NCBI RefSeq assembly: GCF_030403745.1
Contig: NZ_JAQMWP010000008.1
Span: 372,001-436,000, forward strand
Direction: 5' to 3'
Length of the DNA stretch: 64,000 nucleotides
Source of the DNA: Streptomyces sp. S.PB5
GTDB lineage: Bacteria > Actinomycetota > Actinomycetes > Streptomycetales > Streptomycetaceae
Shown one piece after another: positions 31,495 through 34,721 of this stretch. How positions within the stretch are numbered: the first letter of the stretch is position 1; each line of letters starts with the position of its first letter. The notes under the pieces were generated by a model, which saw only the letters and a program-made list of their open reading frames with translations, was not told where the DNA came from and made no database searches. The position numbers and the translations under genes were made by a program.

Positions 31495-33303
31495 CTAGGA
31501 GTTGAGCTTCCGGGCGCGTTCGGCGAGCCGTCCCATCCGCGTCCGGGCGGACTCGAGTTGCTCGGCGTCCTCCACGGCCGGCCCGTCCTCCATCGTCAAC
31601 TCGGTCCACAGTCCGATGAGTTCGACCCCCATCCGCAGACCCTGCTCCGGGTCGCGTACGGCACGCCAGGCGGTCGCCGCGCTCTGGACGTTGCCGTACG
31701 CGGCCTCTGCGTCCCTCGCGCGGTGGCGGATCCGGGCCAGATCGAGCGAGAGCCCGAAGGCGCGGACGGGGTCGTCGGCCAAATAGGCGATGTACGCGGT
31801 GAGTTCGAGCAGCCTCAGCACCTCGGGGTGCTCGCCCCCGAGCGCCCGGGACGCCTCGACGACCGTCTCCTCCGCGAGCCGCGCGGCCTCCGCTATCCGC
31901 CCCGACTTCACCGCCTCGTTGATCCGCGCCATCGGCCCGGCGAGAAACACACTGCCGCCGCCGTCATAGGCGGTCGCCGGGTCATCTCCGAGCACGGCCT
32001 CGGCCACGGCGTCGAACCCGCGTGGCGGAGTGGGCTTGGGGTCGGGGTCGTCGAGACGGGCGCTGGAGTAGTCGACGGCGGGCTTCGGAGCGGGCGCGGC
32101 CACGGACAGGGAGGCGGGGGGCGGTACGGGAGCGGGCGTCTGCGTCGAGGCGGGAGCGGTCACGGGCTGCTCCCCGGTTTCCGGCGCCGGTGCGTTTGCC
32201 GATGCGTCCGCCGGGTGTACGTCCGTCGCCGGTGCGTCCATCACCGGCGGTGGGCCGAACTGTCCCGTCGGCGGCGCGACCGTCCCCGGCACCGCGTCCG
32301 CCACCCACTCCGGTACCGCCCGCAGCCGGAACGTCGGCACGGCGTCCCGCGGCTCCTGCCCCGCCGGGTCCGGCACGGCCCGGATCGGGAAGGTGGGGGG
32401 TTCGGGGGTCTGGCGGAGGAGGTGGGTGGGCTTGTCCCGGTGGGGCTGGTCGGGGTGGGGCTGGTCGGCGGGCTCGGGCGTCTCCTCCAGCTGGGCGGGA
32501 GGTACGTCGTCCCAGGTCGACTCGGCCGCACCCGGCGTGCCCGACGGGTCGGACGGGGGCGCGGGCCAGGTGGTGCGGGGCGTGACCGAGGACTGCGGTG
32601 GCGCGGGGGTTCCCTCCGCGGACTGCGGCGCGAAGGCCCCGTCGGCTCCGGGCGCTCCCGGCCGGGCGGACGACTCCGGCGGCACGGGGCCTCCCACCGC
32701 AGGGTGTGGTGGGAAACCCTCGACCGACTCGGCGGCTCCGGGCGTGGAGGGGGCGGGCGTGGAGGGGGCGGGGGCTGCGGGCGCGTGCCGCTGGGCAGCG
32801 CCCGGCGCGGAAGCCGCGGCGTCCCCGGCCGCCCCCAGCGCCCCGGAAGCCCCGTGCGCGGAAGCCCTATGCGCTCCATGCACTCCATGCACTCCATGCG
32901 CCAAAGCGACAGGCCCGGACGGCAGCTCCGGCCCGGCGGCGGACGCGGCGGGCAGCGCGACGGGTGAGGTCGGGTGCTGCGCCTCGCCCCGCTCCCCCGG
33001 CGGAGCCGTCGGTACCGGCTCCGCCGTGAACTGGCTGGCACCGTTGCTCTCGATGCGCAGGGCGACGACATAGCCGATGCGGTCGTCGTGGACGGTGGCG
33101 TGGACGGGGTGGCCGGTGGCGACGGCGATGCGCTGGAGGTGGTTCAGGACGGTGTGCTGGATCTCCTCGCCCGGAACGGCCGACACCGGTACGCCGCCCA
33201 CCGACGCGCCCCCCTCACCGACGAGGACGTCGATCGGGGCCGCCGCGAGTACCGGGGCACCGGCGTCCTTCTGCTCCCGCTTCTCGCGGCTGAGTCGCGA
33301 CAT
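31495..33303 (-). CDS. Large low-complexity protein with C-terminal TPR-like helical domain
   Basis: A 602-residue cytoplasmic protein of unknown function. Residues 1-100 form a small folded domain (ASVGGVPVSAVPGEEIQHTVLNHLQRIAVATGHPVHATVHDDRIGYVVALRIE). Residues 100-430 are Pro/Ala/Thr/Glu-rich and probably disordered. The last 150 residues (SGRIAEAARLAEETVVEASRALGGEHPEVLRLLELTAYIAYLADDPVRAFGLSLDLARIRHR...) are helical and resemble tetratricopeptide repeats. ATG at 33303 follows GAGGGA. The frame extends further upstream without a better start. It is divergent from the DUF6668 gene, and the two probably work together. Confidence 0.83.
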   Translation of the reverse strand: MSRLSREKREQKDAGAPVLAAAPIDVLVGEGGASVGGVPVSAVPGEEIQHTVLNHLQRIAVATGHPVHATVHDDRIGYVVALRIESNGASQFTAEPVPTAPPGERGEAQHPTSPVALPAASAAGPELPSGPVALAHGVHGVHGAHRASAHGASGALGAAGDAAASAPGAAQRHAPAAPAPSTPAPSTPGAAESVEGFPPHPAVGGPVPPESSARPGAPGADGAFAPQSAEGTPAPPQSSVTPRTTWPAPPSDPSGTPGAAESTWDDVPPAQLEETPEPADQPHPDQPHRDKPTHLLRQTPEPPTFPIRAVPDPAGQEPRDAVPTFRLRAVPEWVADAVPGTVAPPTGQFGPPPVMDAPATDVHPADASANAPAPETGEQPVTAPASTQTPAPVPPPASLSVAAPAPKPAVDYSSARLDDPDPKPTPPRGFDAVAEAVLGDDPATAYDGGGSVFLAGPMARINEAVKSGRIAEAARLAEETVVEASRALGGEHPEVLRLLELTAYIAYLADDPVRAFGLSLDLARIRHRARDAEAAYGNVQSAATAWRAVRDPEQGLRMGVELIGLWTELTMEDGPAVEDAEQLESARTRMGRLAERARKLNS

Positions 33304-33521
33304 CGTTCCCTCACTCGGATCCGTCGGGGAGTGGGTGGACGGCGTGTTCATGTTCCATGGTGCCCCCATCGGCCGCCCGCCTCTCACTTCCCCGGCATCA
33401 AGAGCCGGTCGTACACGTACTGTTGAGTAGTCTCTCCGCTCGCTCACGGTTCTCACGTCACCGTGGCGTCACAGGCTCGTCCCAGGCCGGCGCGGGGACG
33501 CCGAGGAGAAGGAGAGCGTAC

Positions 33522-34046
33522 GTGGAGCAGGGGCAGGGGCAGGGGGCGGTGCGGAGGCAGGGGCCGGAGATCTGGGTCCGTGGGCCGGTCGCCCTCCCGG
33601 AAGATCCGCCGGGGGCCGCCGCCCACGCCGTGGCCTCCACCCGCCGCTTCTCCTTCGTCGGTACGCACGGCGGCGCCGGTGTCTCCACCCTCTCCGTCGT
33701 CTACGGCGGCCATGACTGCGGCCGCGAGTGGCCCGCCCCCGACGCGCCCCCGTCGGTGCTGCTCGTCGCCCGCACGCACGCCTCCGGCCTCGCGGCCGTC
33801 CTGCGCACCCTGGAAGTGTTCCGCCGCGGTGAGGCTCCGCGCGGCCTCGATCTCGACGCCGTCGTGCTCGTCGCGGACGCCCCGGGCCGGCTGCCGAAGC
33901 CGCTCGCCCAGCGCATCAAGGTGATCGAGTCGGTGATCGACGTGTACCGCGTGCCCTGGGTCCCCGCCTGGCGCCTGGGCGACCTCAGCGGCCATCCGCC
34001 GCGCGAGACCGAGTCCCTGTGCCGCCTCATGGGCCGCTCGCGCTGA
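33522..34046 (+). CDS. DUF6668-like protein with P-loop-like motif
   Basis: A 174-residue cytoplasmic protein. After a Gln/Gly-rich N-terminus, the core starts RRFSFVGTHGGAGVSTLSVVYGG, which resembles the deviant Walker A of ParA/MinD-type proteins (GGxGxST) but lacks the lysines, so nucleotide binding is uncertain. Further on, PPSVLLVARTHASGLAAVLRTLEVF and GLDLDAVVLVADAPGRLPKPLAQRIKVIESVIDVYRVPWVPAWR fit a Rossmann-like fold. I recall such proteins as DUF6668 in Streptomyces. GTG start at 33522, ribosome site GGAG. Divergent from the long disordered/TPR gene. Confidence 0.8.
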   Translation: MEQGQGQGAVRRQGPEIWVRGPVALPEDPPGAAAHAVASTRRFSFVGTHGGAGVSTLSVVYGGHDCGREWPAPDAPPSVLLVARTHASGLAAVLRTLEVFRRGEAPRGLDLDAVVLVADAPGRLPKPLAQRIKVIESVIDVYRVPWVPAWRLGDLSGHPPRETESLCRLMGRSR

Positions 34047-34076: not shown

Positions 34077-34104
34077 TCGACAGATACTTGCATGCGCATA
34101 TAAT
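34077..34104 (+). promoter_or_regulatory. Consensus-like sigma70 (HrdB-type) promoter
   Basis: TCGACA (34077-34082), 16 bp, then a perfect TATAAT (34099-34104), 32 bp before the ATG of the reductase gene. The spacer holds ACTTGCATGCGCA, a partial palindrome that could be an operator. Confidence 0.7.
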
Positions 34105-34136: not shown

Positions 34137-34721
34137 ATGACACGCCGTTTCCTGTTCGTGCTCGGCAGCAGCCGCACCGACGGCAACACCGAGCTGCTGG
34201 CACGCAAGGCGGCCGAGCAACTGGCCGAGGACGTCGAGCAGCAGTGGATCGACCTCGACGAGCACCCGCTGCCCGACTTCGAGGACCTGCGCCACGACAG
34301 CGACCACGTCCGCCCGACCGACGGCAACACCGGCCTCCTCCTGGACGCCACGCTCGCGGCGACGGACATCGTGATCGCGTCCCCGCTGTACTGGTACTCC
34401 GTGTCCGCGACCACCAAGCGCTACCTCGACTACTGGTCCGGCTGGCTGCGCACCCCCGGCGTCGACTTCAAGGCCACGCTCGCGGGCCGCACACTCTGGG
34501 GCGTCACCGCCCTCGCGCACGAGGAGTTCGCGGTCGCCGACCCGCTGATCGGCACCCTCAACAACTCCGCTGCGTACATGGAGATGCACTTCGGCGGCGT
34601 CCTCCTCGGCAACGGCAGCAAGCCGGGCGACGTACTGAACGACACGGAGGCACTGGCGCGCGCGAAGACCTTCTTCGCGCAGGAGGCGCCGCTCGCGCGC
34701 TTCCCGTACGACATCCGGTGA
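34137..34721 (+). CDS. NAD(P)H-dependent flavin/quinone oxidoreductase, flavodoxin fold
   Basis: A 194-residue cytoplasmic reductase. The FMN-phosphate loop is LGSSRTDGNTELLARKAAEQL, and SPLYWYSVSATTKRYLDYWS is the second flavin-contact segment of the NADPH-dependent FMN reductase group. The length is standard. ATG at 34137 behind GGGGGTTTCC. A near-consensus promoter and direct repeats lie upstream, suggesting strong, regulated expression, probably in response to quinone or oxidative stress (inference). It is convergent with the ABC operon. Confidence 0.88.
   Translation: MTRRFLFVLGSSRTDGNTELLARKAAEQLAEDVEQQWIDLDEHPLPDFEDLRHDSDHVRPTDGNTGLLLDATLAATDIVIASPLYWYSVSATTKRYLDYWSGWLRTPGVDFKATLAGRTLWGVTALAHEEFAVADPLIGTLNNSAAYMEMHFGGVLLGNGSKPGDVLNDTEALARAKTFFAQEAPLARFPYDIR

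What the first reader, a model, noticed from the sequence alone, without database searches (positions are those of the whole stretch)
31495..34046. Divergent pair: long disordered TPR-like protein and DUF6668 with a P-loop-like motif
The DUF6668 protein has GTHGGAGVST, close to a ParA/MinD deviant Walker A but without the usual lysine. The partner has a folded N-terminus, 330 disordered residues and helical repeats. An adaptor plus a switch-like partner could be an uncharacterised actinobacterial system.
Basis: partly seen in the sequence, partly recalled or inferred. Interest (0 to 1): 0.5.

Follow-up and report, generated by a model that had tools for sequence, protein, structure and literature searches.

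The report
Leftover DNA-transfer machine parts, repurposed
Two neighbouring Streptomyces genes of unknown function look like the surviving pieces of a chromosomal DNA-transfer (type IV secretion) gene set: a nucleotide-switch look-alike without its key lysines and its likely docking partner, still under selection after the machine itself was lost.

Summary
The pair is real and conserved: the partner's N-domain lies divergently beside DUF6668 in 80 of 80 named Streptomyces loci. DUF6668 folds, in prediction, like a short ParA/MinD (best Z 10.1), but neither P-loop lysine is present in any of 127 readable copies, so an ordinary ATP switch is unlikely.

It is not a stand-alone system. On actinobacterial plasmids DUF6668 stands just upstream of T4SS core genes (SCO6880 gene in 15 of 16 records read). 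Nine Streptomyces genomes carry that T4SS at the window's own chromosomal site; other sampled loci are partial (1), pair only (90), partner only (33) or lack both (19). In the DUF6668 tree 89 of 90 pair-only copies form one clade nested among T4SS-linked copies. The pair is under purifying selection.

The partner's linker repeats T[FH].LR..PE in 73 of 74 loci with DUF6668, 8 of 30 without; on a tree, motif loss depends on DUF6668 (2dlnL 26). I infer docking. Elsewhere the N-domain is joined to a ParA-like ATPase. The present role is inferred, not shown.

The parts
33522..34046 (+). DUF6668 gene, 174 aa, short ParA/MinD-like predicted fold
   Evidence: Pfam PF20373 31.4 bits; AF2 pLDDT >=90 for 120 residues; best PDB neighbours ParA, Soj, MinD, McdA, ParF, Z 9.7-10.1
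33660..33689 (+). degenerate P-loop GTHGGAGVST; both ParA lysine positions substituted
33561..33587 (+). conserved N-terminal tail motif GPEIWVRGP, before the folded domain
   Evidence: G14, P15, P22 invariant in 81 rows; W.RGP also in streptomycete T4SS-type copies; coordinates
31495..33303 (-). partner gene, 602 aa: N-domain, disordered linker, TPR-like C-terminus
33010..33234 (-). partner N-domain, residues 24-98; a related domain precedes a ParA-like ATPase in other actinobacteria
   Evidence: block pLDDT above 90; hhalign probability 90%, E 1.6e-6 for one comparison
32398..32430 (-). linker motif copy 1 (PTHLLRQTPEP)
32365..32397 (-). linker motif copy 2 (PTFPIRAVPDP)
32305..32337 (-). 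linker motif copy 3 (PTFRLRAVPEW)
32236..32286 (-). second linker motif (GTVAPPTGQFGPPPVMD), mostly kept also where DUF6668 is lost
   Evidence: FGP.P.M in 72 of 74 loci with DUF6668, 24 of 30 without
31501..32016 (-). TPR-like helical repeat domain, residues 430-601
   Evidence: nine helices; block pLDDT 63-71 at 431-450, 87 or more from 451 on; fold matches
33410..33486 (.). conserved intergenic block between the divergent genes, possibly promoter or operator DNA, with two GTCAC repeats
   Evidence: consensus of 90 pair-only loci; a 14-base core with up to 3 changes in 65 of 90 pair-only, 17 of 30 partner-only, 1 of 13 full loci

Best explanation
The pair is the retained core of a T4SS accessory module. 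SHOWN by sequence: DUF6668 stands just upstream of T4SS core genes on actinobacterial plasmids; the same T4SS sits at this chromosomal site in some Streptomyces; pair-only copies nest among T4SS-linked ones and are under purifying selection. INFERRED: DUF6668 is a pseudo-ParA, a ParA/MinD-like fold that does not cycle through ATP hydrolysis. The partner is a hub whose repeated linker motifs (T[FH].LR..PE) dock DUF6668, while its N-domain and TPR-like domain hold other ligands. In T4SS loci the two would place or load the transfer machinery or its DNA, as VirC1 and other partition proteins do in other T4SSs. After the channel genes were lost, the pair was kept as an ATP-independent placement or docking hub, perhaps for the chromosomal T4SS-like Cmd complex. 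My estimates: origin 0.9; DUF6668-motif binding 0.55; placement role 0.35.
For: T4SS context on plasmids: 15 of 16 records read. Full module at the same site: 9 genomes. Gradation full/partial/pair/partner-only/none. Gene tree: 89 of 90 pair-only copies in one clade, support 0.991, inside T4SS-linked copies. Median dN/dS 0.25 for DUF6668 in pair-only genomes, like the neighbours M28 and RarD. Motif loss depends on DUF6668, 2dlnL 26.2 loss-only, 23.0 with gains; control motif mostly kept. Partner-type N-domain joined to a ParA-like ATPase near DUF6668 elsewhere. Precedent for partition proteins in T4SSs: passages of PMC8716806.
Against: No binding or phenotype data exist. DUF6668 presence needs 11 changes on the tree, mostly losses in my reading, so it is dispensable in some lineages. 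Four of ten scorable DUF6668-less clades keep the motif. Linkers without DUF6668 are also shorter (median 137 vs 178.5). The strict motif is in 0 of 7 T4SS-type partner frames checked (one, L216, has two related TVRVRA repeats) and in none of L184-L186, which have DUF6668 and T4SS. The fold match is structural only; a profile of the family finds no P-loop protein in PDB, and Ras-like folds score Z 8-9.
Confidence: 0.5

Rival explanations
1. Eroding relic: the pair has no present function and is on its way out after the T4SS was lost.
For: Nested losses: T4SS, then DUF6668 several times, with 33 sampled loci keeping only the partner.
Against: Median dN/dS 0.25 (DUF6668) and 0.33 (partner C-domain), near those of flanking genes; 38 invariant columns in 81 DUF6668 rows; 89 of 90 pair-only copies fall in one clade, so the pair seems to have outlived the T4SS through a large radiation.
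Confidence: 0.15
2. The pair serves the chromosomal Cmd complex (CmdA-F, a T4SS-like apparatus whose published six-gene operon includes no DUF6668 gene that I saw) in sporulation and chromosome segregation.
For: A SCO6880-family gene is in 295 of 295 Streptomyces; the window's genome has a single one, in a six-gene T4SS-like cluster. cmd deletion in S. coelicolor gives segregation and septation defects (PMC2782261, parts read).
Against: All 295 have a SCO6880-family gene but 163 lack both genes of the pair. Neither gene lies in the 16.5 kb round the cmd-like cluster (best profile E 0.02 or weaker).
Confidence: 0.2
3. The retained pair acts on incoming related plasmids, as exclusion or transfer interference, by binding their T4SS parts.
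For: The homologous T4SS circulates on plasmids of the same genus.
Against: No direct evidence; no PADLOC defence model matches.
Confidence: 0.1
4. One reading: an ATP-driven ParA/MinD-type switch with an adaptor.
For: ParA/MinD-like predicted fold; conserved HGGxG loop.
Against: No lysine at either P-loop position in 127 of 127 readable copies. In some plasmid systems a separate ParA-like protein with intact lysines is encoded nearby.
Confidence: 0.08

Closest known systems
VirC1 (Agrobacterium) and gonococcal T4SS ParA/ParB
   Same: ParA/MinD-like proteins that work as accessory factors of a T4SS (PMC8716806 passages)
   Different: The gonococcal ParA needs its Walker A box (same passages); DUF6668 has neither P-loop lysine, and the window copy has no T4SS beside it
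cmdABCDEF (SCO4126-4131) of S. coelicolor
   Same: Chromosomal T4SS-like gene set in Streptomyces, related to SLP2 plasmid transfer genes, with a cellular role (PMC2782261, parts read)
   Different: Cmd keeps the membrane parts and ATPase; here those were lost and the accessory pair was kept
SCO6880-type T4SS of actinobacterial plasmids
   Same: Same DUF6668 and, in several streptomycete loci, the same partner in the same divergent arrangement
   Different: The window's locus has none of the T4SS genes
Atypical P-loop proteins TadZ and BcsQ (recalled)
   Same: ParA-like proteins with altered P-loop lysines beside secretion or pilus machines (recalled)
   Different: Not compared here by any search; a lead only

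Membership tests
Pfam DUF6668 (PF20373) | score above the gathering cut-off | tested here: met
   31.4 bits against 27
ParA/MinD ATPases | ParA-like alpha/beta P-loop fold | tested here: met
   AF2 model; VIA Z 10.1, rmsd 3.2, 126 aligned to ParA 3cwq; Soj, MinD, McdA, ParF next. Foldseek best E only 4.8e-3
ParA/MinD ATPases | deviant Walker A with signature and P-loop lysines (KGGxGK[ST], recalled) | tested here: not met
   GTHGGAGVST in the window; no Lys at either position in 127 readable copies
ParA/MinD ATPases | ATP binding, dimerisation and hydrolysis | not testable with these tools
   needs biochemistry
TPR proteins | Pfam TPR model above cut-off | tested here: not met
   TPR_12 14.1 bits, cut-off 30.1
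TPR proteins | TPR-like helical repeat fold | tested here: inconclusive
   Kinesin light chain TPR best in Foldseek, VIA Z up to 13.1, but helical repeats can score high without kinship
T4SS locus | VirB4-like, VirD4-like and SCO6880 genes beside the pair | tested here: not met
   Absent at the window's locus; met in relatives L175-L183
Integrative conjugative element (for the full loci) | relaxase and integrase with the T4SS | tested here: inconclusive
   None among the ten called genes scanned with Pfam in the two full loci followed to both flanks; some short frames were not scanned
Anti-phage defence systems | PADLOC model match | tested here: inconclusive
   no match for P0001 or P0002 at E 0.1; absence of a model is not proof

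The most novel reading that the evidence does not exclude
Streptomyces has domesticated the placement module of a conjugation machine without the machine: an ATP-dead ParA-like protein and a motif-bearing hub now work as a new cell-organising pair, for example steering the Cmd T4SS-like complex or chromosome handling during sporulation.
Probability: 0.25. Interest if true: 0.8.

Novelty: new variant of a known kind. Interest (0 to 1): 0.6.

Why it matters
It gives DUF6668, a family for which the full-text search found 0 papers, a home: a gene just upstream of the core genes of actinobacterial T4SSs, with a ParA-like predicted fold and no P-loop lysines. It also gives a chromosomal series running from a full T4SS to a two-gene core, so the question of what a conjugation machine leaves behind, and why, can be tested in laboratory Streptomyces. 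If the linker motif binds DUF6668, a two-component docking system can be studied in vitro at once.

Tried and rejected
Sequence profile of DUF6668 against PDB: no P-loop relative (2 unrelated weak hits); the fold claim rests on the predicted model alone. NCBIfam (E 1), PADLOC and PHROGs (E 0.1) gave nothing for either protein. A regulatory RNA in the intergenic block: only a sub-threshold microRNA match. Sigma-70 promoter scan: none for the pair; one strong match before the next gene. The 19 loci without either gene were taken from the nearest relatives, not at random; 17 span the site, while L202 and L208 do not reach its far side. Motif counts: 74 and 30 loci with the partner in one open frame, with split frames and T4SS loci added, gives 88 of 92 and 8 of 30. 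Of 13 maximal DUF6668-less clades 3 could not be scored, two of them single loci at contig ends, and the 13 need not all be independent losses. The PF20373 search of 200 family genomes missed the window's own copy, so its counts are lower bounds and were not used. The match list was cut, but below the scores used here.

Full report
OBSERVATION. The window lies in a 10.85 Mb genome that is Streptomyces by its relatives: of the 80 best named matches 79 are titled Streptomyces and one 'Actinobacteria bacterium'. Two genes diverge at 33.3-33.5 kb. DUF6668 (33522-34046, +) passes its Pfam cut-off. The partner (31495-33303, -) has no Pfam hit above cut-off. The starts are later than in the longest ORFs, judged from conserved starts.

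PAIR CONSERVATION. In the first 61 genomes (own genome included), DUF6668 was found in 15. The 11 chromosomal loci of the window's type and the window all carry the partner's N-domain divergently beside it. In 80 named loci, the best 80 of 342 relatives of one scan, 80 of 80 do, with domain starts 491-811 bases apart and mostly the same flanking genes. In 295 Streptomyces genomes at E 1e-10: both 90, DUF6668 only 7, partner only 35, neither 163; of 115 DUF6668 places 87 have a partner hit within 8 kb on the contig, 85 of these divergent. Some misses are contig ends.

STRUCTURE. AlphaFold2 with 81 rows models DUF6668 residues about 41-170 with high confidence, P-loop helix first, then alternating strands and helices. 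The five models differ in mean confidence (82 to 66). Closest solved folds are ParA, Soj, MinD, McdA and ParF, Z 9.7-10.1, ahead of Ras-like GTPases at 8-9; Foldseek has no match below E 1e-3. By its strand order I read it as a ParA core that lacks the middle strands; this is my reading, not computed. The signature-lysine position is His in 23 of 24 plasmid or T4SS-type copies (Thr in one), 13 of 13 full-locus, 1 of 1 partial and 89 of 89 readable pair-only copies (one pair-only row has a gap), and the P-loop-lysine position is never Lys. The missing lysines are thus a trait of the sampled family, not decay in this lineage. The partner has a small alpha/beta N-domain, a long low-confidence linker and nine TPR-like helices.

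HOME OF THE FAMILY. 140 actinobacterial plasmid records carry DUF6668. I read 16: six picked for spread of genera from the first listing and ten of the sixteen rows of an evenly spread listing. In 15 of 16 a SCO6880-family gene starts 2.7-4.7 kb downstream; the exception is pAD51, whose array is broken up. A VirD4-like gene is inside the stretch shown in 12 of 16. In some records DUF6668 is the first gene of its strand, in others a ParA, M23 or cutinase gene precedes it on the same strand, so it heads the T4SS core genes but not always the operon. For L050, NCBIfam and Pfam confirm SCO6880 (510.6 bits) and the coupling protein; the VirB4 assignment is weak by model (36.3 bits, below cut-off) and rests on position and annotation.

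THE PARTNER ELSEWHERE. In streptomycete T4SS-type loci the TPR-type partner was found near 5 of 8 DUF6668 copies (L031 twice, L034, L050, L216; only the N-domain in L035; none found in L051 and L214). In four Micrococcaceae plasmids (L215, L217, L220, L221), an Aeromicrobium plasmid (L054) and a viral-collection contig (L136) a gene next to DUF6668 or up to three genes away has a related N-domain, a linker and a ParA-like ATPase with an intact K-G-[GS]-x-x-K-T loop. N-domain kinship: hhalign probability 90%, E 1.6e-6, one comparison with four and twelve rows; a profile rebuilt with those rows finds L136, L219 and L054, which were not in its seed (E 3e-14, 9e-18, 7e-5), while the first streptomycete profile reached them only at E 0.001-0.1 or not at all. 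The ParA parts score just under Pfam cut-offs. So the partner is an N-domain with an exchangeable output part: ParA-like, TPR-like, or in Cellulomonas (L219) a long coiled-coil-like stretch and probable membrane helix (my reading of the sequence). In five other records (L052, L053, L218, L222, L223) no N-domain was found; L055 has a ParA-like gene (CbiA, E 0.002) without it.

A T4SS AT THE WINDOW'S OWN SITE. The SCO6880 family is in 295 of 295 Streptomyces; most best scores (E about 1e-50 to 1e-55) fit the copy of the window's genome, its only one, which lies in a six-gene cluster that I take for cmd. In 13 genomes a high-scoring copy lies 3-6 kb from a DUF6668 that scores above 150 bits with the window's protein (picked by eye). 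I fetched all 13. Nine (L175-L183) lie at the window's site beside SDR and RarD; in two (G262, G324) I followed the other side to the FMN reductase and ABC genes. Order: partner and a small neighbour gene, lytic transglycosylase, then divergently DUF6668, VirB2/VirB8/VirB6-like, SCO6880, VirB4, VirD4, DUF4913 (the VirB names are mine, by position and similarity to the plasmid genes). Three (L184-L186) show no such flanks in 20 kb and one (L187) ends too soon. L188 has lost the T4SS but keeps the pair and the small neighbour gene. In the two loci followed to both flanks no relaxase or integrase was seen among the ten genes scanned.

DIRECTION. On a tree of seven flanking proteins (152 of 156 loci), presence of the partner needs 1 change, DUF6668 11, T4SS 4. 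In the DUF6668 tree (128 sequences; rooted by me on five divergent plasmid copies) T4SS-linked copies form the outer grades and 89 of 90 pair-only copies one clade (support 0.991); L028 is a separate reduction. Other supports run from 0.5 to 0.96 in the inner tree, and L183 falls in different places in the two trees, so some transfer between strains is possible. Of 19 loci from genomes without either gene, 17 span the site and show no remnant. Median dN/dS in pair-only genomes: DUF6668 0.25, partner C-domain 0.33, N-domain 0.42; flanking M28 0.26, RarD 0.26, polyprenyl synthase 0.09. The pair is under ordinary purifying selection; the N-domain least.

CO-LOSS OF MOTIF AND DUF6668. The linker repeats T[FYHW].[LMIV][RKH], typically PTF.LRAVPE; shuffled linkers show it in 0.4%. 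With DUF6668: 73 of 74; without: 8 of 30. A second linker motif, FGP.P.M, is kept in 72 of 74 and 24 of 30. By clade, the motif is gone in 6 of 10 scorable DUF6668-less clades (in the largest, 1 of 17 members keeps it) and in one locus at the site with DUF6668 (L029). A likelihood model on the tree (119 tips) prefers motif loss depending on DUF6668 by 2dlnL 26.2 (loss only, rate ratio about 95) or 23.0 (with gains, about 72). Against this: shorter linkers without DUF6668, four clades that keep the motif, three T4SS loci with DUF6668 and no motif (L184-L186), and 0 of 7 T4SS-type partner frames with the strict motif. One of these, L216, has two TVRVRA repeats that may be a relative of the motif (by eye). 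The motif may be a later addition in the chromosomal lineage.

MECHANISM. Best reading: DUF6668 is a non-cycling ParA-like platform and the partner a hub that docks it through repeated short motifs. In T4SS loci they would place the channel or its DNA, as partition proteins do in R1, Agrobacterium and gonococcal systems (PMC8716806, introduction passages seen). Where the channel is lost, the hub is retained for another client; the Cmd complex is the nearest candidate because it is a related apparatus whose deletion disturbs segregation in sporulation (PMC2782261: first quarter of the text, found passages and discussion seen). None of this is shown by experiment.

NOVELTY. The search for 'DUF6668' found no paper in the held library; 'SCO6880' found one, on cmd. 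Domesticated T4SS genes (cmd) and ParA-type T4SS helpers are known kinds; a lysine-less ParA-like protein with a motif hub, kept after the T4SS is lost, is a new variant.

Noticed in passing
window 33410-33486: A 77-base intergenic block between the divergent genes is conserved across species, with two GTCAC repeats; its core is also in 17 of 30 partner-only loci, so it may control the partner gene.
   Followed up: partly
window 34077-34104: A near-perfect sigma-70 promoter match (TCGACA, 16, TATAAT; 11 of 12) just before the FMN reductase gene at 34137.
   Followed up: no
L175-L183: Complete T4SS-like gene sets at one chromosomal site of Streptomyces; in the two followed to both flanks no relaxase or integrase was seen among the genes scanned. 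What they transport is unknown.
   Followed up: partly
L232:6633-13827 (window's genome, contig C21): Six-gene T4SS-like cluster, probably cmd, with a VirD4-like last gene (phmmer E 4e-21).
   Followed up: partly
L215, L217, L220, L221, L054, L136: ParA-like proteins with an extra N-terminal domain and disordered linker, encoded near DUF6668 and T4SS genes; a possible partition-transfer link.
   Followed up: partly
L052, L055, L218, L222, L223: In Corynebacterium, Rhodococcus, Dietzia and Gordonia plasmids a cutinase-family gene lies directly or up to three genes before DUF6668.
   Followed up: no
L219:5059-7218: Cellulomonas partner with the N-domain, a long repetitive coiled-coil-like stretch and a probable membrane helix in place of the TPR or ParA part.
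   Followed up: no
L216:5420-6523: Plasmid partner of S. europaeiscabiei with two TVRVRA repeats in its linker, possibly a relative of the chromosomal linker motif.
   Followed up: no
L177:541-1713: Zeta-toxin-like gene (Pfam 127.5 bits) beside a full chromosomal T4SS locus.
   Followed up: no
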